57,793 nt of DNA from an uncultured Lamprocystis sp. (GTDB lineage Bacteria; Pseudomonadota; Gammaproteobacteria; Chromatiales; Chromatiaceae), in NCBI RefSeq assembly GCF_903933125.1, contig NZ_CAIZIZ010000193.1, positions 1 to 57,793 on the forward strand. Direction: 5' to 3'. Positions 34,975-51,289 of this stretch are shown piece after piece (positions within the stretch are counted from its first letter, which is position 1; each line of letters starts with the position of its first letter). The translations under genes and the position numbers were made by a program. The notes under the pieces are model-generated. The model was not told the origin of the DNA and did not search any database. It saw only the letters and a program-made list of their open reading frames with translations.

Positions 34975-36678
34975 TCAGGGCGAAACTCCCGGGTTCGCCA
35001 GGGCGGCGGTCCGCGGCCCGGCCGGATGTCCGGCCCGCGCCAGCGCCGTCAGCAGCATCGCGGTCAGATCGTGCAGCCCACCCAGCGGCGCCCGCGGCGG
35101 CTCCAGTCCGGGGTGGAAGCCCAGCGCGGTGAAGCGCGCCAGCAGTTCAGGGTCGCGGGCAATGATGTGAACCGGTACATCCCAGGAGGCGCCTTCGCCG
35201 CTGACGTTGGCGGTCGGTTGATGGTCGCCCACCAGCACGAACAGCGTCTCGCGCGGCTCGGGTTCGCGCAGGAAGCCGCCGAGCCAGCGGTAGCTGTATT
35301 CGACCATCCGCAGATAGTCGGGGAGCATATGCAGCCAGTTGGGCTGCTCCGCCAGGGTGCGCTCGACCTCGGCCGGGTCGAAGGGCCGGTCGGTCAGCAC
35401 CCGCTGCCAGTCCGGCTGGTACGGCGGCACCTGACTGAACGGCAGGTGGCAGGTGATGGTGGGGAAGAACAGAAAGCGCGGCGGCACACCGGGGCCGCGG
35501 GGGTGCAGTTGCTCGAAGCGGGCCAGGCTGAACTGGTCCGGGATGTTCCAATACCCCAGCGGTGGGCCGCGATAGTCCAGACTGCGTCCCTCCAGGAACA
35601 CATCGAACCCGTAGAAGGCCCGCTCGGGCCAGTCCCAGGACAGCGCCGGGTAGAGTCCGACCGTCTGATAGCCCTGGCCGCGAAAGAGTGTCATCAGGGT
35701 TGGCCGGTCCGTGGTCAGCAGCAAATCGTGGCGGTTCGGGTCGGACAGGTCCAGTCCCGAGAGCAATGACAGGTGTGCCAGATCGGACCCGCCGCCGATG
35801 GTGGGCGAGCCGAGGAAAGCCGATACCACCTGCCGCCCGCCGCCGGCGATGGCGTCCGCCAGTTGCGCGCGCGCCGTCGCCAGGCGCGCGGCGGCTTGCG
35901 GGTTGTCGTAGGCGACAGCGCCATAGGATTCGAGCAGGATCAGATACAGATCGCGTCCGCCCAGGGCGCCGAGCGACTGGCCCGGCGGGGCCGCGAGCGC
36001 CTCATCCAGCGCGGCGGAGGGCGGCAGCGCCTGCGCCAGCCGTTCGGGCGAAACGGCCGTGGCCAGCAACCGGGCCTGCCGCCAGTAGGTCGGAATCACC
36101 GGTTTGGAGACCACCGGCCAGGTGGCCCGCCCACCGGCCAGATTGGCGGTCGCGAGCACCACCGCTGCGGCGCTGAGCGCCCACACCCAGGGTGTGCGCA
36201 GCGCATAGGGCACGGCCTCGCGGGCCGCCACCGCGATGGCCAGCCGCAGCAGCCGGTACAGGCCCCAGAACAACAGCAGCACCACCGCGACCAGGCCGGC
36301 GCTCCGCCACCAGGCCAGGTCCTGGGCCGACACCCACAGGAAGCGTGGGATCTGGGCGCCGTCCCAATACAGATTGATCGCGCGGCCGAACAGGCTGGGC
36401 ACCGTGACATCGGCATAGCGGCCGATCACCAGCAGCAAGTACACCAGGGTAAAGGCCGCCAGTGCGCCGCGGGACAGGGTACCGCGCAGACCCACCACGG
36501 TCAGGAGCCCCAACCACAGCCAGACGAACTCCGGTGCCAGCCGGTGGTCGGGCAGGACGCCCGGCGTCGGCCACCACTCCTTGAAGCTCAACATGCCGTT
36601 CAGGACCAGCAGCGCCAAGACCGCCGCCGCGATGCGGCGGTAGGGACGGGCGGAGACGGACAGGGTGTGGGTGGTCAT
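34975..36678 (-). CDS. LtaS/OpgB-like phosphoglycerol transferase (sulfatase superfamily)
   Basis: 567 residues. About five N-terminal membrane helices (up to about 195) are followed by a periplasmic alkaline-phosphatase-superfamily domain. The nucleophile is probably Thr293 in GSPTIGGGSDL, preceded by the metal site LILLESYGAV, with a second metal site in VLVGDHQPTAN. LtaS and OpgB enzymes move phosphoglycerol from phosphatidylglycerol to a polymer. Next to a glucan synthase this suggests decoration of periplasmic glucan with phosphoglycerol. Its start overlaps the methyltransferase stop (ATGA). Confidence 0.78.
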   Translation of the reverse strand: MTTHTLSVSARPYRRIAAAVLALLVLNGMLSFKEWWPTPGVLPDHRLAPEFVWLWLGLLTVVGLRGTLSRGALAAFTLVYLLLVIGRYADVTVPSLFGRAINLYWDGAQIPRFLWVSAQDLAWWRSAGLVAVVLLLFWGLYRLLRLAIAVAAREAVPYALRTPWVWALSAAAVVLATANLAGGRATWPVVSKPVIPTYWRQARLLATAVSPERLAQALPPSAALDEALAAPPGQSLGALGGRDLYLILLESYGAVAYDNPQAAARLATARAQLADAIAGGGRQVVSAFLGSPTIGGGSDLAHLSLLSGLDLSDPNRHDLLLTTDRPTLMTLFRGQGYQTVGLYPALSWDWPERAFYGFDVFLEGRSLDYRGPPLGYWNIPDQFSLARFEQLHPRGPGVPPRFLFFPTITCHLPFSQVPPYQPDWQRVLTDRPFDPAEVERTLAEQPNWLHMLPDYLRMVEYSYRWLGGFLREPEPRETLFVLVGDHQPTANVSGEGASWDVPVHIIARDPELLARFTALGFHPGLEPPRAPLGGLHDLTAMLLTALARAGHPAGPRTAALANPGVSP

Positions 36679-37400
36679 CCTGCGCTCAGTGCCGGTTGGT
36701 CGGGTCCACCGCCGCCGGGACGGAGTCGGCTGCCCTGGTCCGTGGTTGCCGCCGCCACCCGGCCTTGGGCGATGTAGCCCATGCCATACTGGGTCGGGGT
36801 CAGCCGCCAGTCGGTCAGCCGCGGGGCGATGCGATCCCAGGGCGTCCGCAACTCACCGGGAGCGCCGTTATAACCGTGGTTCTTGAAATAAACCCAGAGG
36901 TTCAGCGGCGCCAGCCAGCGGGGGAAGAACTTGATGCCCGCGATGGCCACCGCCGCCCCCGGCCGCGCGCCGGCCAGGAGGCGTTCGAGGGCGGACGCTG
37001 AGCGCAGAATGTCGTGGGTGTAATGAAACAACAGGGCATCGACCGGCGTGGGCAGCGCCAGGCCCTGGGCGGGCGTCTCGAACAGCGTGATATTGGTCCA
37101 GCCGGCCGCCGCGACCCGCGCGCGGGCCTGGCTGAGCATGTCGGGGCTCTGGTCGAAACCGTAGACCCAGCCGGAATCACCCACCCGCTGGCGCAACAGG
37201 GGCAGGCTCAAACCGGTGCCGCAGCCCACATCGAGCACCCGTTGTCCGGGTTGCAGCTGCAGCGCGGCGATGGTGCGCTCGCGGATCGGCCAGGTCGGGC
37301 CGCAGGTGGCGTCGTACCCGGCGGCGCGCTTGCGGTACTTCGCCACGGACAGCGAGCGCACCTGGGCGTCGGGCAAAGGCTCTGGTTCATCGATTTTCAT
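36675..37400 (-). CDS. Class I SAM-dependent methyltransferase
   Basis: 241 residues. SAM-binding motif I is VLDVGCGTGLSLPLL, then VYGFDQSPDML (motif II region) and DALLFHYTHDILRS. The start at 37400 (MKIDEPEPL) is preferred; an upstream in-frame extension to 37436 has no ribosome-binding site. It overlaps the LtaS-like gene by 4 nt and so belongs to that transcript. The substrate is unknown; a lipid or glucan modification would fit the context, but this is inference. Confidence 0.8.
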   Translation of the reverse strand: MKIDEPEPLPDAQVRSLSVAKYRKRAAGYDATCGPTWPIRERTIAALQLQPGQRVLDVGCGTGLSLPLLRQRVGDSGWVYGFDQSPDMLSQARARVAAAGWTNITLFETPAQGLALPTPVDALLFHYTHDILRSASALERLLAGARPGAAVAIAGIKFFPRWLAPLNLWVYFKNHGYNGAPGELRTPWDRIAPRLTDWRLTPTQYGMGYIAQGRVAAATTDQGSRLRPGGGGPDQPALSAG

Positions 37401-37493
37401 GGCTCGGAGAGTGACGGCGGATGCGCCCCGGCACAAGCGGCGCGCGACCGCCGCGACCGGTGGGGATATGACGGAGCCCGTCGCAGCAAGCCG

Positions 37494-38648
37494 CTAGGGC
37501 CACAGACGCCATCCCAGGATGATTCCCAGGATGATCACGAGCGCCAGCGCTCCGGCCAGCGCACCCAGGATCAGGTTGAAGCGCCGCGTGGCAGCGGCGA
37601 TGCCCCGTTGGATACGTTCGTCCATGATCCGCTCCGACTTCAGTTCGCCGGCGGCGATCCGCTGATTGATGAGCTGACTCCACTCGGTCCGGAATTCGGC
37701 TTGCAGGCGGTCACGAAACACCTGGTTCATCTCCAGAAGACGCTTCTCACGCTGGATAAGGGTCTCCAGAATCGCGGCGTTTTGCGCGTCGTGTTCCTCT
37801 CGATAGTGCACCAGCCGCGGGCAGTCGGTGAGACTGCAGGGCGCGCTGTCGCTTCCCGACTCGGTTGCCGCGCACGGGTCGGGCGGCGGCGGGGCGACCG
37901 CAGGCTGCGGCGGATGCCCGAGATCACCCGCGCGAACCGTGGCGACCCGTGATGGCTCGATCGGCGCCACATCCCCGACCGGGGGGGGCGGCAAGGGTTG
38001 GACCGGCACCGTCAGTATCCGGTCCGCGGCCGGTCGCTCGTCGCGTTGCGGGAAGGCATCGGGCGAATCCGCATCGGGCGAATCCGCATCCACCGAGTCC
38101 ACATCGATCGCATCCACATCGGCCAAATCCTCGACCGCATCGGTAGTCTCCTCCAGGCCAAGCAGCCGCCGGTTCCCAGGGATCGACAACCAGGCCCCCA
38201 TGTCCATGGATTGCACCTCATAACCCTGGTCTATTTTGTTCGCCGCCCATCCCGGCGAGCGGACACTCAAGTCATCGATCTGATTGACCTGCGCGACCTG
38301 TTGGACCAGTGGAACGACGCGCCGCTGCAACTCTTCGTGAGGGATCACCTGCGTGGCGCCGAACGACTTGACGCGTTTGGCGTGCCGCTGCCCGGCGGTG
38401 TCGGTGATCACATAGATCGGCAGGGTCGGCAGGCGTTGACGCAGGATGACCAGGGCGTCGATCGTCTCATCGACCGCGGGGGCCAGGCCCAGCACGATCG
38501 CTTGCAGGTCGTCACCGCTCTGCAGGATCGCCGCCGCGTCATCACAGATCTGGATGCTCGCCCCCGCGGAACTGAACATGCCGCACACGAGTTGTCGCGC
38601 GACGCGATCCTTGATGCTGACGGCGATACGGACTGGTTTCTTACTCAT
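37494..38648 (-). CDS. Tail-anchored protein with a degenerate receiver-like domain
   Basis: 384 residues. Residues about 5-120 have the secondary-structure rhythm of a response-regulator receiver (IRIAVSIKDRVARQL-type start, LPIYVITDTAG, FGATQVIPHEEL). The phospho-Asp position is Gly54 (VLGLAPAVDE), the N-terminal acidic pair is lacking and the conserved Lys is absent, so it should not be phosphorylated. An acidic repeat (VDSVDADSPDADSPDAF) and a Pro-rich linker follow. Then come a coiled coil (about 290-345) and one C-terminal membrane helix (LALVIILGIILGW) with a 3-residue tail. The ATG at 38648 is used; the frame upstream is repeat C. Not a recognised family. Confidence 0.68.
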   Translation of the reverse strand: MSKKPVRIAVSIKDRVARQLVCGMFSSAGASIQICDDAAAILQSGDDLQAIVLGLAPAVDETIDALVILRQRLPTLPIYVITDTAGQRHAKRVKSFGATQVIPHEELQRRVVPLVQQVAQVNQIDDLSVRSPGWAANKIDQGYEVQSMDMGAWLSIPGNRRLLGLEETTDAVEDLADVDAIDVDSVDADSPDADSPDAFPQRDERPAADRILTVPVQPLPPPPVGDVAPIEPSRVATVRAGDLGHPPQPAVAPPPPDPCAATESGSDSAPCSLTDCPRLVHYREEHDAQNAAILETLIQREKRLLEMNQVFRDRLQAEFRTEWSQLINQRIAAGELKSERIMDERIQRGIAAATRRFNLILGALAGALALVIILGIILGWRLWP

Positions 38649-39186
38649 GACGCTCCCGATGAATAGCCCCGGACCGCAAGGCCCGCGATGCCCGGCAGTT
38701 CCAAATTTTAGGGCATCGCGCGCCCCCCGGGTGGATGCGGCGCGCACGACCGACGCGCGGGTCCCCGAGCACCGTGCGGCGCGCCTTATCCACCCTACAA
38801 CAGTGTCGGTTTTGTAGGGTGGATAAGCGCAGCGCATCCACCATCAGCCCTGGTATCGATCAGATTCCGCGCTGATTCTGACATGGATTCCGCGCGGCTG
38901 GCTCGGGTATTCCAGCAGTTTATACGCAATCAGCGTGTTATAGCCGTCGGACGTGATAACCCGCCCCTACGTCAAGGCCCTGTCTGGATCTCAGGTGCGC
39001 GGGCGCTACCGTGACAGTCCCACCGAGACCTGGTCCTCGTGGGAGCGGCCTCCGGCCGCGATGCGGTGCCGGGGTGGGGGACCATGGTCGAGATCTCGCG
39101 CGATCCCATCGCGGCCGGAGGCCGCTCCCACGGGAGACGTATCCTGACCGCCGTGACCGCGCCGAGCCTTGATCTCAATCAACGCG
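38649..39186. repeat. 538-bp intergenic repeat cluster: family C (38693-38854) and family B (39039-39131)
   Basis: Family C here runs from CAGTTCCAAATTTTAGGGCA through GTGGATGCGGCGCGC and GGCGCGCCTTATCCACCCTA to GGATAAGCGCAGCGCATCCA. The same order is found inverted at 56588-56746. Family B copy 1 has perfect 25-bp arms, GTGGGAGCGGCCTCCGGCCG plus CGATG and its complement ending GGCCGCTCCCAC. I see no gene in this gap. The senB stop lies just beyond, so the repeats may form the transcript end. Confidence 0.8.
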
Positions 39187-40134
39187 TCACAGTTCGCCCA
39201 GCAATGCCGCCCAGGCGGACGTTTCGCCCTCCAGGGTAAAGAGGTGCCGCCGTCCTGCGCAAGCGGACACCAGGCTTTGGTAAAACGCGGGATCGGTCTC
39301 CGCCCGCAGCAGCAGGTCGCGCAAGCCTGGCGTGTCTTCGACCGGGTAGTAGCCGGGGTAGTCACAACCCAGCAGGCCGATGGAGCCGCTGATCCGCGAG
39401 GCGATGACCGGCAGACCAGCCACCAGGGCCTCGGAGATGACGTTGGCCCCGCCTTCCATCCGCGACGGCAGCACCAGTAGATGGGCGCGTGTATAGGCCT
39501 GCCGTACCCGGTGGTGAGGAACCTCGCCGTACCAGCGGTAGCGGGGGTTGGCGGCCATTTCCCGGGTCGCCGCCAGCGCCCAGTCCGGGCTGTGCGCGGC
39601 CCCGTAGTGATCGACCCGCAGCCGGCTCGCGGGCGGCAGCTCGCGCATGGCCAAAGCCGGACGCAGGGGATCTTTCTCCTCGCGCAGGTGCCCGGCGACG
39701 CAGACCAGGAAATGCCGCCTCGAGGGGCGCCGGGGACCCGTGGGTCGGGCCGATTGGTGAATGATCCGGATTTTCGACCGGTGTTCCGGCGGCACCCGGT
39801 CGCCGATCAGGTCGTGCAGGCCCACCAGGCGGTGGGCGAGTGCGATGGAGCGCAGCGTGGGCTCCGGGTGGCTGTCGATGAAGCGGTAGGCGTCGGTGCC
39901 GGTCAGTGCGACCACTAGCGGGCGGTCCGGATAGTCCGCGGCGAACCGGGCGATGGCGTCCGCACTACGCCAGGCGTGCAGTGCAACCATCAGGTCGGCG
40001 GATTCGCCCCCATAGTCGACAGAGACCTGGACCTGATGCCCCAGGGCGCGCAGGATCGCGGCCCAACGGGTGGCCGTCGCCCGGTTTCCGGACCGGGAGC
40101 GCGGTGGAGCCGGGGTGATCAAGCGGATGTGCAT
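39187..40134 (-). CDS. senB: Selenosugar synthase SenB (glycosyltransferase, TIGR04348 family)
   Basis: 315 residues of GT4-like fold. The opening MHIRLITPAPPRSRSGNRAT, then LMVALHAWRS and PLVVALTGTDAY are the pattern I know from the TIGR04348 family. That family was shown in 2022 to be SenB, which joins selenophosphate and UDP-sugar to form a selenosugar. The C-terminal donor site reads LLVLPSRMEGGANVISEAL. The ATG at 40134 is chosen; the longer in-frame region would translate the senA promoter and start repeats. It is divergent from senA with 105 nt between starts. The assignment is by recalled family pattern, with strong support from the neighbours. Confidence 0.83.
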   Translation of the reverse strand: MHIRLITPAPPRSRSGNRATATRWAAILRALGHQVQVSVDYGGESADLMVALHAWRSADAIARFAADYPDRPLVVALTGTDAYRFIDSHPEPTLRSIALAHRLVGLHDLIGDRVPPEHRSKIRIIHQSARPTGPRRPSRRHFLVCVAGHLREEKDPLRPALAMRELPPASRLRVDHYGAAHSPDWALAATREMAANPRYRWYGEVPHHRVRQAYTRAHLLVLPSRMEGGANVISEALVAGLPVIASRISGSIGLLGCDYPGYYPVEDTPGLRDLLLRAETDPAFYQSLVSACAGRRHLFTLEGETSAWAALLGEL

Positions 40135-40239
40135 GGAGTATTCTTCACGGCCTGTGAGCGGCCGAGCCTGTGACCGATGGCGTTGCGTCGGGGGCTGTCG
40201 AAGACCCCTATGTGACGCTGCACCGCGCATTTGAAAGCC

Positions 40240-41550
40240 ATGACCACCATGACCACCATGACCAGCATGACGACCCTGAGTGCCCAAATCCAAGACGCCC
40301 GCGCCCGCACCTTGGCCCTGATCGCGGGTCTGGATGAGGTCCAGCTCATGGGGCCGCGGCTGCCCATCGTCAATCCGCTGCGTTGGGAGATCGGCCACGC
40401 GGCCTATTTTTACGAATTATGGGTCCTGCGCCACCACGGCGGCGAGGCGCCGGTCCGGCCGGACGTGGACCAGCTCTACGACTCCATGACCATTGCCCAC
40501 GACACCCGCTGGGACCTGCCCCTGCCGTCGCTGGCGGACACCCTGGCCTATATGCGCAGGGTGCAGGAGCGGGTGTGCGCGCGGCTCGCCGATGGCACGG
40601 ATGACCCGCGGCGGGACTATCTCGCGCAATACGCTCTCTATCACGAGGACATGCATACCGAGGCCTTCACCTATACCCGCCAGACCCTGGGTTATCCGGC
40701 GCCCGCCATCGGGACCGCGGTGCCTGGGGTCGCACCAGCCGACCGGCCGTCGGGCGATGCGGCGATTCCGGGCGGCACGTTCCTGCTGGGTGCCGCGCCC
40801 GCGGACGGCTTCTGTTTCGATAACGAACAATGGGCGCATCCGGTCGAGGTGAGTCCCTTCCGGATCGCCCGTACCGCGGTCAGCAACACCGAGTATGCCG
40901 CCTTTGTGGACGACGGCGGATACCGGCGGCCCGCGTTATGGGACCCGGAGGGCTGGCAGTGGCGGACCGCCGCCGCCCTGGATCAGCCGGTCTATTGGCG
41001 CCGGGCGGGGAGTGGCTGGGAGCAGCGGCGCTTCGCTCAGTGGGAGGCGCTGCCCTCGTTTGCCGCGGTCATTCATGTGAGCTGGTACGAGGCCCGCGCC
41101 TACTGCCGCTGGGCGGGGCGCCGTCTGCCCACTGAACTGGAATGGGAAGTAGCCGCGGCCGGTGCGCCGGCGCAGGGCGGTCGGGGCCTGGCCAGGTCCA
41201 AACGCCGCTACCCCTGGGGCGATGCCGCTCCCGATCCGACCCGCGCCAATCTCGACGGCGCGGCCTTGGGCACAGGTGACGTGGCGGCCCTGCCGGCCGG
41301 CGACAGCGCCTTCGGTTGCCGCCAACTGATCGGCAACTGCTGGGAGTGGACCGACACCCTGTTCGGCCCCTATCCCGGCTTCCGTCCGGATATGTATCAG
41401 GACTACTCACAGCCGCTGTTCGGCAACACGCGGATCCTGCGCGGCGGCGGGTGGGCAACCCGCGGCCGTCTCATCCGCAACACCTGGCGCAATTACTACG
41501 GCCCCGAGCGCAACGATGTCTTCGCGGGCTTCCGGACCTGCGCCCCATGA
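40240..41550 (+). CDS. senA: Selenoneine synthase SenA (EgtB-like)
   Basis: 436 residues. A DinB-like N-terminal domain carries the iron-binding triad His53 (WEIGHAAYF) and His135/His139 (YHEDMH). The C-terminal FGE-sulfatase-like domain starts at GGTFLLGAAP and ends RILRGGGWATR...DVFAGFRTC. SenA joins the selenosugar to hercynine by oxidative C-Se bond formation, while EgtB does the sulfur version. The divergent senB and nearby selD favour SenA. Four in-frame ATG codons spaced 9 nt apart (40240, 40249, 40258, 40267) make the start uncertain. The stop overlaps egtD as ATGA. Confidence 0.85.
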   Translation: MTTMTTMTSMTTLSAQIQDARARTLALIAGLDEVQLMGPRLPIVNPLRWEIGHAAYFYELWVLRHHGGEAPVRPDVDQLYDSMTIAHDTRWDLPLPSLADTLAYMRRVQERVCARLADGTDDPRRDYLAQYALYHEDMHTEAFTYTRQTLGYPAPAIGTAVPGVAPADRPSGDAAIPGGTFLLGAAPADGFCFDNEQWAHPVEVSPFRIARTAVSNTEYAAFVDDGGYRRPALWDPEGWQWRTAAALDQPVYWRRAGSGWEQRRFAQWEALPSFAAVIHVSWYEARAYCRWAGRRLPTELEWEVAAAGAPAQGGRGLARSKRRYPWGDAAPDPTRANLDGAALGTGDVAALPAGDSAFGCRQLIGNCWEWTDTLFGPYPGFRPDMYQDYSQPLFGNTRILRGGGWATRGRLIRNTWRNYYGPERNDVFAGFRTCAP

Positions 41551-42539
41551 GCCTGCAATCAAACGGCAGCCGACCCGCGCTGCAACTGACTGACCTGCAC
41601 CCGACCCCGGCCGATCTGGCGGCCGAGGTTCTGGCTGGTCTCCAGCGCCGGCCCCGCGCGATTCCGCCCAAGTTCTTCTACGACGCTCGCGGATCCCAGC
41701 TCTTCGACGCCATCACCCGGACGCCGGAGTATTACCCGACCCGCACCGAGATCGCCATCCTCCAGACCCGGGCCGCCGAGATCGCCGCCTGCGTGGGTGC
41801 CGGCAGCGTGCTGGTGGAGCCGGGCAGCGGCAGTTGCATGAAAGTCCGGTTGCTGCTGGAGGGGCTGAAACCCTGCGCCTATGTGCCCATGGACATTTCC
41901 CGCGATCACTTGCGGGTGGCCGCGGAGCAGGTCGCGGCCGAGTTTCCCTGGCTGGAAGTCCATGCCGCCTGCACCGATTTCACCCGCCGGATGGAAGTGC
42001 CCGACAGCGCGCCCGAGGGGCCGCGGGTGGCCTTCTTTCCCGGCTCCAGCATCGGCAACTTCGACCCGGACGGGGCGGTCGACTTCCTGGCGGTGGTGGC
42101 TGCCCTGGTCGGCCCCGGCGGCTTCCTGCTGATCGGGGTCGATCTCAAGAAGGATCCGGCGGTGCTGAACGCGGCCTATGACGACGCCGCCGGGGTCACC
42201 GCCGCCTTCAACCTGAACCTGCTGGCGCGCATCAATGCGGAGCTTGGAGCGGACTTCGACCTAGGTGCCTGGCGCCATCGCGCCTTTTACAATGCCCAGT
42301 TGGGTCGGATCGAGATGCATCTGCTGAGCACCGCCGATCAGCGGGTCCACTGCGGCGGTATCTGCTTCGATTTCGCGATGGGGGAAACCATCCACACCGA
42401 GAATTCCTACAAATATTCCATCGCCGAGTTCCAGTCCATTGCCTCGTGTTCGGGCTTCACCCCCGAGGCGGCGTGGACCGACACAGGCAACCTGTTCAGC
42501 GTCCATCTATTGCGGGTTCCCGATGCGTCCGCGGACTGA
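41547..42539 (+). CDS. egtD: L-histidine N-alpha-methyltransferase EgtD
   Basis: 330 residues. Trimethylates histidine with SAM to hercynine, the precursor of ergothioneine and selenoneine. The motifs are PKFFYDARGSQLFDAIT, the SAM loop LVEPGSGSCMKVRLLLEGL, FFPGSSIGNFDPD and MGETIHTENSYKYS, all characteristic of the DUF2260/EgtD family. It is translationally coupled to senA by a 4-nt overlap. No egtA, egtC or egtE accompanies it, so hercynine is expected to go to SenA, although EgtB-type use cannot be excluded. Confidence 0.93.
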   Translation: MSLQSNGSRPALQLTDLHPTPADLAAEVLAGLQRRPRAIPPKFFYDARGSQLFDAITRTPEYYPTRTEIAILQTRAAEIAACVGAGSVLVEPGSGSCMKVRLLLEGLKPCAYVPMDISRDHLRVAAEQVAAEFPWLEVHAACTDFTRRMEVPDSAPEGPRVAFFPGSSIGNFDPDGAVDFLAVVAALVGPGGFLLIGVDLKKDPAVLNAAYDDAAGVTAAFNLNLLARINAELGADFDLGAWRHRAFYNAQLGRIEMHLLSTADQRVHCGGICFDFAMGETIHTENSYKYSIAEFQSIASCSGFTPEAAWTDTGNLFSVHLLRVPDASAD

Positions 42540-43105
42540 TCAAGCGTCGGAAATGTTGTCGTTGTCGTAATCGGAGAAGCGATCGATTCGCGACATGGCC
42601 TTGATCAAGATTCCGGCCACTTGGGCTCGCCGGGTGCGTAGTCAGGCCATCCTGGCCTGACACCGTCAGGGCTGGAAGCCCTGACTACGCACGCCACTGG
42701 CCGGGATTACGATCAAGGACGTTCCGGCGGCGCACTGGAGGTCGAGGCTTTACGGACCAGGGCCGCGCGAACGCGATTTCGACGGGCTAACGGTTATGGA
42801 GGGCGCATCGGCCACCCCGGACGATGAATGGCCCCCGTGGGAGCGGCGTCCCGCCGCGATGCGGTGCCGCGGTGATCTCGAACGCTGCGGGGACACGCCC
42901 GACCCCATCGCGGCGGGACGCCGCTCCCACAGGGTCGCTGCGCGACTTTCACGGTTAAGCCTCGACCTCCGGTTTTTTGCGGCCGGAACGATGATCAAGA
43001 CCAACCGCGACACCAACGGCGTTCCCTGAGAACGGAGCGGTTCCTGAGGCGGGGTGCGGCGGTTTTTTCTTATCACGATTCATTCAGTCCTGACAGCCGG
43101 TTCCT
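42540..43105. repeat. 566-bp repeat-filled gap: TTGTCG motif, family A copy 3, family B copy 2
   Basis: GTTGTCGTTGTCGTAATCGG lies at about 42555. The 59-bp double hairpin A3 is at 42634-42692 and differs from copy 1 by no base that I can see. Family B copy 2 occupies 42737-42984. It has outer arms GGAGGTCGAGGCTT and AAGCCTCGACCTCC and perfect inner 25-bp arms GTGGGAGCGGCGTCCCGCCG plus CGATG at 42837-42930. No gene is visible. selD may need its own promoter, which I could not place. Confidence 0.82.
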
Positions 43106-45373
43106 ATGCAGTCATCCACTACGCCCGTCATCAAGGATCTGGTACTCGTCGGGGGCGGTCATGCCCATGTGGCCGTGCTGCGCCGTTTCGGCATGAAGCC
43201 GGTGCCGGGGCTGCGTCTCACCCTGATCACCCGTGATGTGCATACCCCCTACTCAGGCATGTTGCCCGGCTACCTGGCCGGTCATTACGACTACGATGCC
43301 TGCCATATCGATCTGGGGCCGCTGGCCCGGTTCGCCGGGGCGCGCCTCTATCATGCCGAAGTCGAGGGCCTGGATGCAGCGAACCGAAGACTCGAGGTCG
43401 CGGGCCGCCCGCCGGTGACCTTCGATCTGCTGTCTATCAACATCGGTTCCCGACCGCGGACCCTGGATGTGCCGGGGGCCGCGGAATTCGCCATCCCGGT
43501 CAAGCCCATCGACGCCTTTCTGGTGCGCTGGGAGGCGCTGATCGCGCGCGTGCTGACCAGTCGCGGCCCCTTTCGCATCGGGGTCGTCGGGGGCGGGGCC
43601 GGCGGAGTGGAAGTGGTGCTCGCCACCCGGCACCGTCTGCGCCAATGTCTGCGCGAGCGCGGGGATGATCCGGCCCGCCTGAGCTTCAGCCTGCTCACCG
43701 CCGGGCCGGTCATCCTGCCGACGCACAACCCCGGCGTGCAGGCCCGCTTTCAGCGTGTGCTCACGGCGCGGGGCATCGCCGTGCTCACCGGGCATCGGGT
43801 GCGGGAGGTGACCGCGACGGCGCTGCTGGCGGAGGGTCAGGCGGCTGTTGCGGTCGACGCGACCCTGTGGGTCACCAGCGCGGCGGCGCCGGCCTGGCCC
43901 GGCGCGGCGGGGCTCGCGGTGACGGATGAGGGCTTCATCCGGGTCGACACGCACCTGCAATCGGTCTCCCACCCCGGTGTCTTCGCCGCCGGGGATGTGG
44001 CCGCGTTGTCCGACCCGCGGCCCAAGTCCGGCGTCTTCGCGGTGCACCAGGGGCCGGTGCTCGCGGAGAATCTGCGGCGCGCCGCGACCGGCCGGCGTCT
44101 GGTCGGCTACCGGCCGCAACGGCGCTTCCTGGGCCTCATCAGCACCGGCGACCGCTATGCGGTGGCCTCGCGCGGCGGCTGGTCGCTGGAGGGAGCCTGG
44201 CTGTGGCGGGCCAAGGACTGGATCGACCGCCGCTTCATGGCGCGCTTCAATGACCTGCCGCGGATGCCGGCGGACCAGACCGCCCCGGCGCTGGCCGCCG
44301 GGCTCGCCGACCAGGCGGCCATCCGCGAGCTGTCCACACTCGCCATGCGCTGCGGCGGCTGTGGCGCCAAGGTCGGCAGCAGCGTGCTGACCAGGGTGAT
44401 GCAGCGGCTGACGGCCGGGACCCGTGCCGATGTGCTGGTGGGTCTGGACGCGCCGGACGACGCGGCGGTGCTGCTGGTGCCGCCCGGCAAGCTGCTGGTG
44501 CAGAGCGTGGACTATTTTCGCGCCTTTCTGGATGACGCCTATCTCTTCGGGCAGATCGCCGCCAATCACGCCCTGGGCGATCTGTTCGCCATGGGCGCCG
44601 AGCCCCAGTCGGTGCTCGCCATTGCCACCGTTCCCTATGGCCTGGAGCGGGTGGTGGAAGAGACCCTGCACGACCTCATGCGCGGCGCCCTGGCCAGTGT
44701 CGGTCCGACCGGCGCCGTGCTGGCCGGCGGGCACTCCAGCGAGGGCGCCGAACTGGCCTTCGGACTCACGGTCAACGGTCTGGTCGATCCCGACACCATC
44801 TGGCGCAAGGGCGGTCTCCAACCCGGCGACTGTCTGATTCTCACCAAACCGCTCGGCACCGGCACCCTGTTCGCTGCGGACATGCGTCGGCAGGCCAAGG
44901 GACGCTGGATCGACGCCGCGCTCGCGTCCATGATCCTCTCCAGCCAAGCCGCCGCGGCCTGCCTGGGGCGCCACGGCGTCACCGCCTGTACCGACGTAAC
45001 CGGCTTTGGGCTCCTGGGCCATCTGGTGGAGATGACCCGCGCCTCCGGCGTGGATGCCGTGCTGGACCTCGCGGCCATCCCCCTGCTGGACGGCGCCGCC
45101 CAGACCGTCGCCGCCGGCATCCTCTCGTCACTCCAGCCCCAGAACCTGCGGCTGCGCCGCGCCGTGCGGGATCTGGAGCAAACCGCCCGGCATCCACTGT
45201 TCCCGCTGCTGTTCGACCCCCAGACCGCCGGCGGACTCCTGGCCGGAGTCCCGGCGCACCAGGCCACCGCCTGCGTCGCCGAACTGCACGCCCGCGGCTA
45301 TCCGGCCGCCCGGATCATCGGGCGCATCGAAGCTGCCGGCGCGGCCGAGGAGCCCATCACTGTCAATCACTGA
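43106..45373 (+). CDS. selD: NDH-2-like flavoprotein fused to selenophosphate synthetase (SelD)
   Basis: 755 residues. Residues 1 to about 390 are a pyridine-nucleotide oxidoreductase: LVGGGHAHVAVLRRFG for FAD, VVGGGAGGVEV for NAD(P)H and VFAAGDVAAL near the flavin. From about 405 there is a complete SelD with catalytic Cys419 and Lys422 in CGGCGAKVG, then GLDAPDDAAVL, NHALGDLFAMGAEPQSVLA and DVTGFGLLGHL. SelD makes selenophosphate from selenide and ATP. The catalytic residue is Cys (TGT), not selenocysteine. Behind senA and egtD it would supply SenB, playing the role of SenC. The flavoprotein half may generate or handle selenide or persulfide; this is inference. Confidence 0.92.
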   Translation: MQSSTTPVIKDLVLVGGGHAHVAVLRRFGMKPVPGLRLTLITRDVHTPYSGMLPGYLAGHYDYDACHIDLGPLARFAGARLYHAEVEGLDAANRRLEVAGRPPVTFDLLSINIGSRPRTLDVPGAAEFAIPVKPIDAFLVRWEALIARVLTSRGPFRIGVVGGGAGGVEVVLATRHRLRQCLRERGDDPARLSFSLLTAGPVILPTHNPGVQARFQRVLTARGIAVLTGHRVREVTATALLAEGQAAVAVDATLWVTSAAAPAWPGAAGLAVTDEGFIRVDTHLQSVSHPGVFAAGDVAALSDPRPKSGVFAVHQGPVLAENLRRAATGRRLVGYRPQRRFLGLISTGDRYAVASRGGWSLEGAWLWRAKDWIDRRFMARFNDLPRMPADQTAPALAAGLADQAAIRELSTLAMRCGGCGAKVGSSVLTRVMQRLTAGTRADVLVGLDAPDDAAVLLVPPGKLLVQSVDYFRAFLDDAYLFGQIAANHALGDLFAMGAEPQSVLAIATVPYGLERVVEETLHDLMRGALASVGPTGAVLAGGHSSEGAELAFGLTVNGLVDPDTIWRKGGLQPGDCLILTKPLGTGTLFAADMRRQAKGRWIDAALASMILSSQAAAACLGRHGVTACTDVTGFGLLGHLVEMTRASGVDAVLDLAAIPLLDGAAQTVAAGILSSLQPQNLRLRRAVRDLEQTARHPLFPLLFDPQTAGGLLAGVPAHQATACVAELHARGYPAARIIGRIEAAGAAEEPITVNH

Positions 45374-45407
45374 ACCAGGGCACCGATCCAACCGAACTCG
45401 CAACGCC

Positions 45408-45428
45408 ATTCCGGCGTCTTCCCGGAAT
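45408..45428. terminator. Hairpin between convergent selD and bioD
   Basis: ATTCCGG-CGTCTTC-CCGGAAT, 7-bp perfect arms with a 7-nt loop, in the 80-bp spacer between convergent stops. There is no clear T-run on either side, so it is a weak or bidirectional terminator at best. Confidence 0.35.
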
Positions 45429-45453
45429 AACGGGGGGTGCTTTTCCAGCCATT

Positions 45454-46146
45454 TCAGGTGAAACGGGTGACGAGTTCCAGCCATTCGGGATGAAGGAGTC
45501 CGGCCAGTGCGTCCGGCACGGGCGCCTCCCGCCAGGGGATGACGCCGAGGCAGGGGGCGTCGAGCCGTGCGGCGAGTGTCGCCAGGTTTTCGGCGCCGGC
45601 TTGCAGTTCGGGGTCGATGCGGTTGCCGACCCAGCCGGCCAATGGGCTGCCTTTGGCGCGGATGCTCTCGGCGGTAAGCAGGGCGTGGTTGAGGCAGCCG
45701 AGTTTGAGTCCGACGACCAGGATGACCGGCAGCGCCAGGGCCTTGGGGAGGTCACTGACCGAGAGTGTGGGGCTCAGGGGGACGCGCCAGCCGCCGACGC
45801 CCTCGACGATGACCAGGTCACACGCGGCGCTCAGGGCACGGTAGGCGTCGGCGATGGTGTCGAGCCTGATCTCGACTCCGGCCCGGCGCGCGGCGATGTG
45901 GGGGGCGATGGGGGGGATGAAGGCGTAGGGGTTGATCAGGTCATAGGGTGCGGCAATGCTGCCTTGCGTCTGGAGGCGCAGGGCGTCGGCATTGCGTGGT
46001 CCCTGGGGGCTCGGGTCACAGCCGGAGGCGACGGGTTTCATGCCGAGCACCCGCACACCGCGTGCCTGCCGGGCGGCCATGAGGGCCAGGCTGATCTCGG
46101 TCTTGCCGCAGTGGGTGTCGGTGCCGGTGACGAAGACGCCGCGCAT
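45454..46146 (-). CDS. bioD: Dethiobiotin synthetase
   Basis: ATP-dependent carboxylation and ring closure of diaminopelargonic acid to dethiobiotin. It is 230 residues. The P-loop is GTDTHCGKTEIS at the N-terminus. The motifs GMKPVASGC and VEGVGGWRVPL are typical, with the Lys of KPVAS contacting substrate. The start at 46146 overlaps the bioC stop by one base. It is the last gene of the biotin operon and converges on selD. Confidence 0.93.
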   Translation of the reverse strand: MRGVFVTGTDTHCGKTEISLALMAARQARGVRVLGMKPVASGCDPSPQGPRNADALRLQTQGSIAAPYDLINPYAFIPPIAPHIAARRAGVEIRLDTIADAYRALSAACDLVIVEGVGGWRVPLSPTLSVSDLPKALALPVILVVGLKLGCLNHALLTAESIRAKGSPLAGWVGNRIDPELQAGAENLATLAARLDAPCLGVIPWREAPVPDALAGLLHPEWLELVTRFT

Positions 46147-47030
46147 CAGGCGCCCTGCCGGCTGCCAACCCGGCCGCCAACCCGACCAATGGCGCTGACG
46201 GGGACGGCAATGCCCCCGGCCATGGGTTTCTGCTGGGGTGCCCAGGCGTGTCCGTAGACGACTTCGTAGCTGGCGGGCAGCCGGCCCTCGCGGCGGCGGT
46301 GTTCGTAGGCGGATTCGAGTGCCGCCAGACGGCGGGGGCCGGTCAGCCCGCGGGGGCGTTCGGCGGTGGCGTTGTGGGCGCCGATGCCTTTCAGGTCTCG
46401 CATCAGATCGCGTAGCCGGGTGTAGGTGACCGTCAGCCGCTCGGTGTCCATCACCGGGTCGGCGAAGCGCGCCCGCACCAGCGCATCGCCCACATCGTGC
46501 ATGTCCGCGAAGGGGCTGACGTGCGAATAGCCGTCGACGCTGGACCAGTCGGCGCGCAATTCCTTGAGCGTATCCGGACCGAAGGTGGTGAACATCAGCA
46601 GGCCGCCGGGCGCCAGCACGCGCAGGCACTCGGTGAAGGCGGCGTCGAGGTCGTTGCACCATTGGAAGGTGGTGTTGGACACAATCAGATCGAAGGCCCC
46701 GTCGGCGAGCGGCAGGCGTTCGGCGTCGCCGCACACACACAGCGGGCGGCGCAGCCAACTGCCGCGGCGGCGGGCATGCAGCAGCATGGGTTGTGCGAAG
46801 TCGAGCGCGATCAGCCGTGCCCGGCGGTAGCGGCGGCGCAGCGCGTCGAGCGCGTAGCCGGTGCCGGCGCCCAGATCCAGCACCCGCCGGGGCTCCAGGC
46901 GCACATAGTCGAGCCGTTCCAGGAGGCGGTCGGCGATCTCCCGTTGCAGCACGGCCGCGGCGTCATAGCCGGGTGCGGCGCGCTCGAATGCGCGGCGGGC
47001 GCGATGTTTGTCGATGGGTGGCGGGGTCAT
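46146..47030 (-). CDS. bioC: Malonyl-ACP O-methyltransferase BioC
   Basis: Methylates the free carboxyl of malonyl-ACP to disguise it for fatty-acid synthesis of pimelate. It is 294 residues. The motifs are RRAFERAAPGYDAAAVLQRE, typical of BioC starts, VLDLGAGTGYALDAL (SAM motif I), FDLIVSNTTFQWC and LMFTTFGPDTLKELR. It lies between bioH (34 nt upstream) and bioD. The C-terminal tail is longer and Gly/Arg-rich compared with E. coli BioC. Confidence 0.93.
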   Translation of the reverse strand: MTPPPIDKHRARRAFERAAPGYDAAAVLQREIADRLLERLDYVRLEPRRVLDLGAGTGYALDALRRRYRRARLIALDFAQPMLLHARRRGSWLRRPLCVCGDAERLPLADGAFDLIVSNTTFQWCNDLDAAFTECLRVLAPGGLLMFTTFGPDTLKELRADWSSVDGYSHVSPFADMHDVGDALVRARFADPVMDTERLTVTYTRLRDLMRDLKGIGAHNATAERPRGLTGPRRLAALESAYEHRRREGRLPASYEVVYGHAWAPQQKPMAGGIAVPVSAIGRVGGRVGSRQGA

Positions 47031-51000: not shown

Positions 51001-51024
51001 GGGGGCTTCATCATCTCCTCAACC

Positions 51025-51289
51025 GGAGGCCGAGGCTTTACCGGACCAAGCCGCGTGGAAGCGATGACGGCCGGCTAACGGCCATGGAAGGAGCATCAAG
51101 CCACCCCGGAAGAGGAAAGTCCCCCGTGGGAGCGGCGTCCCGCCGCGATGCGGTGCCACGGTGACCGCGAACGCTGCGATGACGCGCCCGGCCCCATCGC
51201 GGCCGGAGGCCGCTCCCACGGGGTCGCTGCGCGACGTTCACGGTAGAGCATCGGCCTCCGGCCTTCTGCGGCCGGAACGGCGATCATGG
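51025..51289. repeat. Repeat family B, copy 3, with outer and inner inverted arms
   Basis: Outer arms GGAGGCCGAGGCTTTACC (from 51025) and GGTAGAGCATCGGCCTCC (to 51260) pair with few mismatches, followed by TTCTGCGGCCGGAACGGCGA. Inner arms are at 51126-51219. The left inner arm reads GCGGCGTCCCGCCGC, like copy 2. The right reads GCGGCCGGAGGCCGC, like copy 1, so this copy is a hybrid. It fills the gap between the LOV gene and the DUF29 gene. Confidence 0.82.

What the first reader, a model, noticed from the sequence alone, without database searches (positions are those of the whole stretch)
39187..45373. Complete-looking selenoneine biosynthesis locus (senB, senA, egtD, selD fusion)
SenB-type selenosugar synthase, EgtB-like SenA, EgtD and a SelD occur together. 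SenA-SenB-SelD(SenC) is the known recipe for selenoneine. egtD in the same transcript adds the hercynine supply that many sen clusters leave unlinked. If this is a phototrophic sulfur bacterium, a dedicated selenium antioxidant pathway there would be worth describing. The layout is divergent (senB on one strand, senA-egtD on the other), with a repeat-rich gap before selD.
Basis: partly seen in the sequence, partly recalled or inferred. Interest (0 to 1): 0.85.

Follow-up and report, generated by a model that had tools for sequence, protein, structure and literature searches.

The report
Self-contained selenoneine gene cluster, fused SelD
A relative of purple sulfur bacteria carries, side by side, the genes needed to make the selenium antioxidant selenoneine, including one that makes the building block hercynine and an unusual two-part enzyme that should activate the selenium; the pathway is known, but this all-in-one version gives the two-part enzyme a likely job.

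Summary
The window encodes SenB (411 bits, cut-off 300), a SenA-type enzyme (518, cut-off 420; EgtB model 346, under its 360), EgtD (406, cut-off 290.9) and an NDH-like oxidoreductase fused to SelD. Grouping with EgtB is rejected (AU p 0.0037). The SenA model also accepts OvsA, the ovoselenol enzyme (435), so it cannot settle the product. Selenoneine is favoured because egtD overlaps senA, is the only egtD found in the genome, and the three residues that let engineered OvsA bind hercynine read Y/N/Y here against wild-type M/Q/A. The 566-base gap before selD consists of dispersed repeats that contiguous relatives lack, so the fusion belongs to the locus. The genome also has a standalone SelD, SelA and tRNA-Sec, but no SelU; the fused SelD looks like the pathway's own SenC. 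In this family 14 of 16 SenA genomes have the fusion's N-terminal domain (13 seen joined to SelD, one cut by a contig end); only this one has SelA. Published work tied the fusion to selenocysteine or selenouridine. Phototrophy is unproven: no reaction-centre gene found.

The parts
39187..40134 (-). senB, selenosugar synthase (Se-glycosyltransferase), 315 aa
   Evidence: TIGR04348 411.5 bits, cut-off 300; only place over the cut-off in the genome; best solved relatives are SenB entries 8jjn/8jjq/8fbx; N17, T20, K154, E227 at the positions of VpSenB N20, T23, K158, E231 (residues named in PMC10891094)
40135..40239 (.). divergent intergenic stretch between the senB and senA start codons, presumed control region
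   Evidence: coordinates; no promoter was tested
40240..41550 (+). senA-type nonheme-iron C-Se bond-forming enzyme, 436 aa (start may be as late as 40267)
   Evidence: NF041186 518.3 bits, cut-off 420; EgtB TIGR03440 346.3 below 360; HxxRW (H87, R90, W91), M138, Y389, N418, Y419; model pLDDT 90.4
41547..42539 (+). egtD, histidine N-alpha trimethyltransferase (hercynine supply), 330 aa
   Evidence: TIGR03438 406.3 bits, cut-off 290.9; only egtD match in the genome at E <= 0.001
42540..43105 (.). gap of two dispersed, palindromic repeat elements (42597-42721; about 42729-43005), inserted between egtD and selD
   Evidence: 94 matches in own genome, own place and both strands counted, 40 of 674 candidates scored; fold z -8.4 and -8.3; in L013, L014, L015 the ends of the egtD and fusion matches are 14, 0 (overlapping) and 76 bases apart
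43106..44260 (+). N-terminal NDH-2-like FAD/NAD domain of the fusion (residues 1-385)
   Evidence: TIGR03169 488.8 bits, cut-off 310; best folds for this half are YjlD and type II NADH dehydrogenases; no invariant or nearly invariant cysteine
44342..45373 (+). C-terminal selenophosphate synthetase domain (residues 413-755), the presumed SenC
   Evidence: TIGR00476 294.7 bits, cut-off 125; CGGCGAK with C416, C419, K422; best folds SelD 2yye, 3u0o

Best explanation
It is a self-contained selenoneine biosynthesis locus. EgtD trimethylates histidine to hercynine. The fusion protein makes selenophosphate: its SelD domain phosphorylates selenide, and its FAD/NADH domain probably provides the reducing power that turns a more oxidised selenium form into selenide or keeps the CxxC of the SelD domain reduced. 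SenB moves the selenium from selenophosphate onto a UDP-sugar to give a selenosugar. SenA couples the selenosugar to hercynine with iron and oxygen, giving selenoneine after loss of the sugar. Shown here: gene content, order, family membership, specificity residues, genome-wide copy numbers. Inferred from characterised relatives: each reaction. Speculative: the role of the FAD/NADH domain.
For: Curated models for all four genes are passed. SenB residues named in PMC10891094 are kept, except EGGANV for EGGAHV. Of the protein rows of 300 aa or more, 46 (45 loci plus the window; not thinned for near-copies) carry HxxRW, and all 46 of these carry M in HxxMH, as in SenA and OvsA; the 20 EgtB-type rows (19 loci plus MthEgtB) all have Q at that place and none has HxxRW. 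EgtB grouping rejected, AU p 0.0037. A PDB title says that OvsA M401Y/Q430N/A431F binds hercynine and has selenoneine-making activity; the window has Y389, N418, Y419 there. egtD overlaps senA, and it is the only egtD match in the genome. In the SenA-model listing, which stops near 192 bits, G000 shows nothing but SenA, whereas the class of matches beside egtD in relatives scores about 315-354. senB, senA, egtD and the fusion are contiguous in L013 (=L105), L014 (=L101; egtD there in two overlapping pieces) and L015, and the end of senA, egtD and the fusion are contiguous in G034, whose SenA is the nearest (L125). The genome's other SelD (429 bits) is standalone, SelA and a tRNA-Sec lie together elsewhere, and no SelU was found.
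Against: OvsA also passes the SenA model (435 over 420, tested with the engineered 8ux5 sequence), and the window protein scores higher against OvsA (331 bits) than against Variovorax SenA (237 bits). The branching order among Variovorax SenA, OvsA and the window's clade is unresolved (AU p 0.35 and 0.51). 5 of the 16 SenA genomes in the family show no egtD (G042, G093, G097, G189, G192; 90, 83, 79, 95 and 98% complete), so related enzymes may use another or an imported substrate. The third specificity residue is Tyr, not the Phe of Variovorax SenA and of the engineered OvsA. The fused SelD may also feed other users. Nothing about expression or product is known.
Confidence: 0.84

Rival explanations
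1. An ovoselenol-like (OvsA-type) pathway: the EgtB-like enzyme uses histidine, and a methyltransferase later methylates the ring; egtD is there for another purpose.
For: OvsA is the best solved relative by score and by fold; the SenA model accepts OvsA; tree order unresolved; 5 of 16 SenA genomes in the family lack a detected egtD. A small SAM methyltransferase (36675-37436) lies about 1.75 kb beyond senB, and its homologue directly follows the fusion in G034.
Against: The three specificity places read Y/N/Y, not the wild-type OvsA M/Q/A; egtD overlaps senA. Homologues of the small methyltransferase were found in only 2 of the fetched loci (L103, L125; many loci are short), and no OvoA C-terminal model is among the 25 of 35 families shown for it.
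Confidence: 0.07
2. An ergothioneine EgtB in a chance neighbourhood.
For: Same fold; MthEgtB is 41% identical over 410 columns; TIGR03440 score 346 is near its 360 cut-off.
Against: Motifs, tree and AU test; senB beside senA in 44 of 49 loci.
Confidence: 0.02
3. The sen genes make selenoneine, but the fused SelD mainly serves another selenium user and is only a neighbour.
For: Of the 25 family genomes with TIGR03169 over cut-off, 9 have SelU but neither SenA over cut-off nor a whole senB in the 3.7-15 kb fetched around the fusion; on a Rhodobacter plasmid the fusion follows mnmH/selU directly.
Against: No SelU was found in this genome and it has another SelD; the fusion is next to sen genes in relatives of several genera.
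Confidence: 0.07

Closest known systems
sen cluster of Variovorax paradoxus DSM 30034 (senA, senB, senC)
   Same: SenA, SenB and a selenophosphate synthetase; same chemistry expected (PMC9814287, whole text; PMC10891094, passages)
   Different: there the cluster encodes three proteins, its SelD named SenC; here egtD is built in and SelD is fused to an NDH-like domain; SenA is 42% identical over 338 columns. The original paper (Nature 2022) was not held.
OvsA of Halomonas utahensis (ovoselenol)
   Same: HxxRW and HxxMH motifs, fold; selenosugar chemistry is recalled
   Different: wild type has M/Q/A at the three specificity places; the window has Y/N/Y. The paper (Nat Chem 2024) was not held.
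Methylorubrum populi BJ001 plasmid pMPOP01 senA-senB (NC_010727.1)
   Same: divergent senA/senB pair, SenB 55% identical
   Different: no egtD and no selD among the annotated genes of the 11.5 kb stretch shown
NDH-SelD fusions (COG1252-SelD; PMC2432076, PMC2398784, PMC4561486; passages read)
   Same: same domain order and the CxxC in the SelD domain (CGGC here)
   Different: PMC2432076 ties the fusion to the known uses (selenocysteine, selenouridine) and PMC4561486 to genomes with selenoproteins; PMC2398784 leaves the function open beyond selenophosphate synthesis. The passages do not mention sen genes.

Membership tests
SenB (TIGR04348) | score over the curated equivalog cut-off | tested here: met
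   411.5 over 300; next best model 96 bits
SenB (TIGR04348) | K158, N20, T23, E231 and EGGAHV of VpSenB | tested here: met
   K154, N17, T20, E227 present; the motif reads EGGANV, one change
SenB (TIGR04348) | makes selenosugar from selenophosphate and UDP-sugar | not testable with these tools
   needs an assay
SenA (NF041186) | score over cut-off and over EgtB | tested here: met
   518 over 420; EgtB 346 below 360. Not specific: OvsA scores 435
SenA (NF041186) | groups with characterised SenA and not with EgtB | tested here: met
   Se-type branch of 44 rows, support 100/99; EgtB grouping p 0.0037
SenA (NF041186) | groups with SenA and not with OvsA | tested here: inconclusive
   AU p 0.35 and 0.51
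SenA (NF041186) | hercynine-type specificity residues (OvsA M401Y/Q430N/A431F) | tested here: met
   Y389, N418, Y419; Tyr in place of Phe at the third (variant named)
SenA (NF041186) | uses hercynine | not testable with these tools
   needs an assay
EgtB (ergothioneine sulfoxide synthase) | RxxR and HxxQH active-site pattern, TIGR03440 cut-off | tested here: not met
   HDTR and HEDMH; 346.3 below 360
OvsA | histidine-type residues M/Q/A | tested here: not met
   Y/N/Y
EgtD (TIGR03438) | score over cut-off | tested here: met
   406.3 over 290.9
SelD / SenC | score over cut-off; catalytic Cys and Lys | tested here: met
   294.7 over 125; C419 and K422 in CGGCGAK. The roles of Cys17 and Lys20 of E. 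coli SelD are recalled.
NDH-SelD fusion (TIGR03169 plus SelD) | N-terminal FAD domain over cut-off; CxxC in the SelD domain | tested here: met
   488.8 over 310; TIGR04369 fusion_not_SelD 466 below 700; CGGC 416-419
Sulfide:quinone oxidoreductase | conserved redox cysteines | tested here: not met
   no invariant or nearly invariant Cys in residues 1-385 of 16 aligned fusions; the SQR cysteines themselves are recalled

The most novel reading that the evidence does not exclude
A large share of the NDH-SelD fusions, reported in 2008 as about 40% of cysteine-type SelDs in ocean samples (PMC2398784) and elsewhere tied to selenocysteine or selenouridine, are really the selenophosphate source of selenoneine operons (later kept for selenouridine where sen genes decayed). 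Marine and sulfur-cycling bacteria would then be an overlooked, genetically marked source of selenoneine, with the NDH-like half acting as a built-in selenium reductase.
Probability: 0.25. Interest if true: 0.72.

Novelty: new variant of a known kind. Interest (0 to 1): 0.46.

Why it matters
It would give a selenoneine producer whose pathway genes all sit together, a ready unit for expression. It gives the NDH-SelD fusion a likely job: this genome has a standalone SelD besides SelA and tRNA-Sec, and a fused SelD beside senB/senA. It also offers a residue test for telling selenoneine from ovoselenol clusters, which the curated SenA model lumps together.

Tried and rejected
Rejected: EgtB identity (motifs, tree, AU test). 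Rejected: SQR-type chemistry for the N-terminal domain (no conserved Cys). Rejected: the gap as an RNA of a known family (no Rfam match at gathering scores in 36000-46500); it is dispersed repeats. Not settled: SenA against OvsA by tree. Not settled: whether the organism is phototrophic. Literature searches in whose listings I saw no paper on an egtD-linked or fused-SelD sen locus: 5 papers; 2; 20 of 37 listed; 3; 0; 20 of 21 listed; 20 of 312 listed; 1; one search listed ovarian cell-line papers. The two key papers (Nature 2022; Nat Chem 2024) are not held, so a prior description there cannot be excluded. The fusion model has mean pLDDT 79.6, pTM 0.50 and residues 350-423 below pLDDT 50, so domain arrangement was not interpreted.
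Full report
WHAT IS THERE. Four genes lie at the stated place. senB is at 39187-40134 on the minus strand; senA (40240-41550), egtD (41547-42539) and a fused oxidoreductase-selD (43106-45373) are on the plus strand. senA and egtD share four bases. All pass their curated NCBIfam cut-offs by 98 bits or more: SenB 411.5 over 300, SenA 518.3 over 420, EgtD 406.3 over 290.9, TIGR03169 488.8 over 310, SelD 294.7 over 125. The EgtB model gives the SenA-type protein 346.3, under its 360. SenB keeps the residues that PMC10891094 (passages read) names for catalysis and sugar choice: N17, T20, K154, E227, with EGGANV in place of EGGAHV.

SENA OR SOMETHING ELSE. The fold model is good (pLDDT 90.4); its best PDB matches are OvsA, then MthEgtB, then Variovorax SenA. 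I asked three questions. First, is it EgtB? No. Of the protein rows of 300 aa or more, 46 (45 loci and the window) carry H-x-x-R-W, and all 46 carry M in HxxMH, as do SenA and OvsA; the 20 EgtB-type rows (19 loci and MthEgtB) all carry Q there and none has HxxRW. These rows were not thinned for near-copies. In the tree 55 of 68 rows were used (13 near-copies, short or broken rows were left out); the 44 Se-type rows form a branch with support 100/99, and a tree that puts the window's clade beside MthEgtB is rejected, p 0.0037. Second, is it OvsA? The SenA model cannot say, because OvsA (the engineered 8ux5 sequence) scores 435 on it. The tree cannot say either (p 0.35 and 0.51). By score the window is nearer OvsA (331 bits) than Variovorax SenA (237). 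But a PDB title states that OvsA M401Y/Q430N/A431F is a hercynine-binding variant with selenoneine-biosynthetic activity. The window reads Y389, N418, Y419; wild-type OvsA reads M, Q, A. Among the 46 rows the triple is YNY in 22, YNF in 15, YTY in 6, FNY in 1, XNF in 1, and falls outside the truncated protein in 1; none reads M/Q/A. Third, is hercynine at hand? egtD overlaps senA and is the only egtD match in this genome. In the SenA-model listing, which stops near 192 bits, G000 shows nothing besides SenA, while the class of matches that lies beside egtD in relatives scores about 315-354. So hercynine made here has one evident taker; takers of other families (for instance EanB-like rhodaneses) were not searched.

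THE GAP AND THE FUSION. The 566 bases before selD gave 94 matches in this genome, its own place and both strands counted, with 40 of 674 candidates scored; they fall in two palindromic families. The relatives with all four genes in a row have no such insert: the ends of the egtD and fusion matches are 14 bases apart in L013, overlap in L014 and are 76 apart in L015; in L125, from the genome with the nearest SenA (G034, 75% identical), the two open frames are 30 bases apart. The fusion therefore belonged to the row of genes before repeats entered. In a census of 49 loci (duplicates of the same genome and loci with EgtB-type or more distant matches left out; four fragments too short for motif typing kept, of which L046 might be EgtB; flanks unequal and often cut by contig ends) senB is present in 44, egtD in 14 (in L031, L032 and L034 some 3 kb away), the NDH-like domain in 27 (28 with L075, whose piece fell under my threshold), and a SelD without it in 4 (L027, L036, L037, L040). 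Some relatives' loci look broken or misassembled: egtD in two pieces in L014, senB in two pieces in L097, a stop in senA of L075.

GENOME-WIDE SELENIUM USE. In 210 genomes of the family SenA is over cut-off in 16, in only 1 of 8 of the window's genus; EgtD in 107; TIGR03169 in 25; SelA in 16; SelU in 41. Of the 16 SenA genomes, 14 have TIGR03169 over cut-off, 10 have SelU, 1 (the window's) has SelA, and 11 have at least a piece of egtD; G042, G093, G097, G189 and G192 have none. Of the 25 genomes with TIGR03169 over cut-off, 24 were seen to run on into SelD and one (G198) is cut by a contig end. Of these 25, 14 have SenA over cut-off, G047 has a senA end at a contig edge, G048 has senB beside the fusion but no senA match in the 12 kb fetched, and the other 9 have SelU; one of those (G191) keeps a 39-residue senB remnant next to the fusion. 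So each of the 25 goes with sen genes or SelU. These genomes are related and the counts are not independent. In a tree of 36 fusions the SelU-only ones fall in several places among the sen-linked ones (4 changes), so the fusion has no separate sen-only lineage. The window's genome has a standalone SelD on contig 357 (429 bits), SelA on contig 466 with a tRNA-Sec 3 kb away, and no SelU match. The simplest reading is two SelDs with two duties.

HOW THE FUSION MAY WORK. The SelD half has CGGCGAK; the CxxC fits the report that all NDH-SelD fusions found carry it (PMC2398784, passages). The other half resembles YjlD and type II NADH dehydrogenases, and among 16 aligned fusions no cysteine in it is conserved, which speaks against SQR-like chemistry. 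PMC2432076 (passages) proposed that it reduces a selenium compound for SelD. PMC4561486 (passages) found selenoproteins and other Sec genes in all the genomes with extended SelDs that it examined. That is not the rule here: 24 of the 25 genomes lack SelA over cut-off.

WHO IT IS. Equal contig lengths suggest that G064 and G067 are the Chromatiales MAG Adamantis Mar_7 and Gammaproteobacteria bacterium Milos-ODIII6, so the family probably lies in or near Chromatiales. Reaction-centre genes (PF00124) occur in 7 of 8 genomes of the genus but not in the window's own assembly. It may be a non-phototroph or an assembly gap.

NOVELTY. The parts are known, and public annotation already names such genes (for example on Methylorubrum plasmid pMPOP01). 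What I did not find described is the all-in-one arrangement with egtD and the fused SelD, and the tie of that fusion to selenoneine. The two founding papers are not held, so this is a cautious 'new variant'.

Noticed in passing
36675-37436 (-) and 34975-36678 (-); L125 5090-5713 and 1980-3695; L103 1810-2448 and 2684-4267: A small SAM methyltransferase and a sulfatase-family protein lie near the sen locus here and in two other genera; in G034 (L125) the methyltransferase frame overlaps the end of the fused selD. It could modify the product.
   Followed up: partly
L123 3492-6897 (G048): senB and the fused selD are adjacent with no senA match in the 12 kb fetched; the genome has an EgtB-class match beside an egtD elsewhere. 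Either a decayed locus or a selenosugar made without SenA.
   Followed up: partly
L134 3158-3274 (G191): A 39-residue remnant of senB (59% identical) beside an intact fused selD in a genome with SelU: a likely relic of a lost sen locus.
   Followed up: no
L095, L100, L101, L103-L105: Six SenA-type enzymes have Thr in place of Asn at the second specificity position (YTY), in genomes both with and without a detected egtD.
   Followed up: no
window genome G000: No PF00124 reaction-centre match, although the 7 other genomes of the genus have two each; possible loss of phototrophy or an assembly gap.
   Followed up: partly
42597-42721, 42833-42934, 39036-39142: Strong palindromes (fold z -8.4, -8.3, -6.8); the first two belong to the dispersed repeats, one of which also lies at 51022-51286. 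The third, downstream of senB, looks alike but was not searched.
   Followed up: partly
40240-40275: Four near-perfect 9-base repeats (ATGACCACC and variants) give four possible start codons of senA.
   Followed up: no
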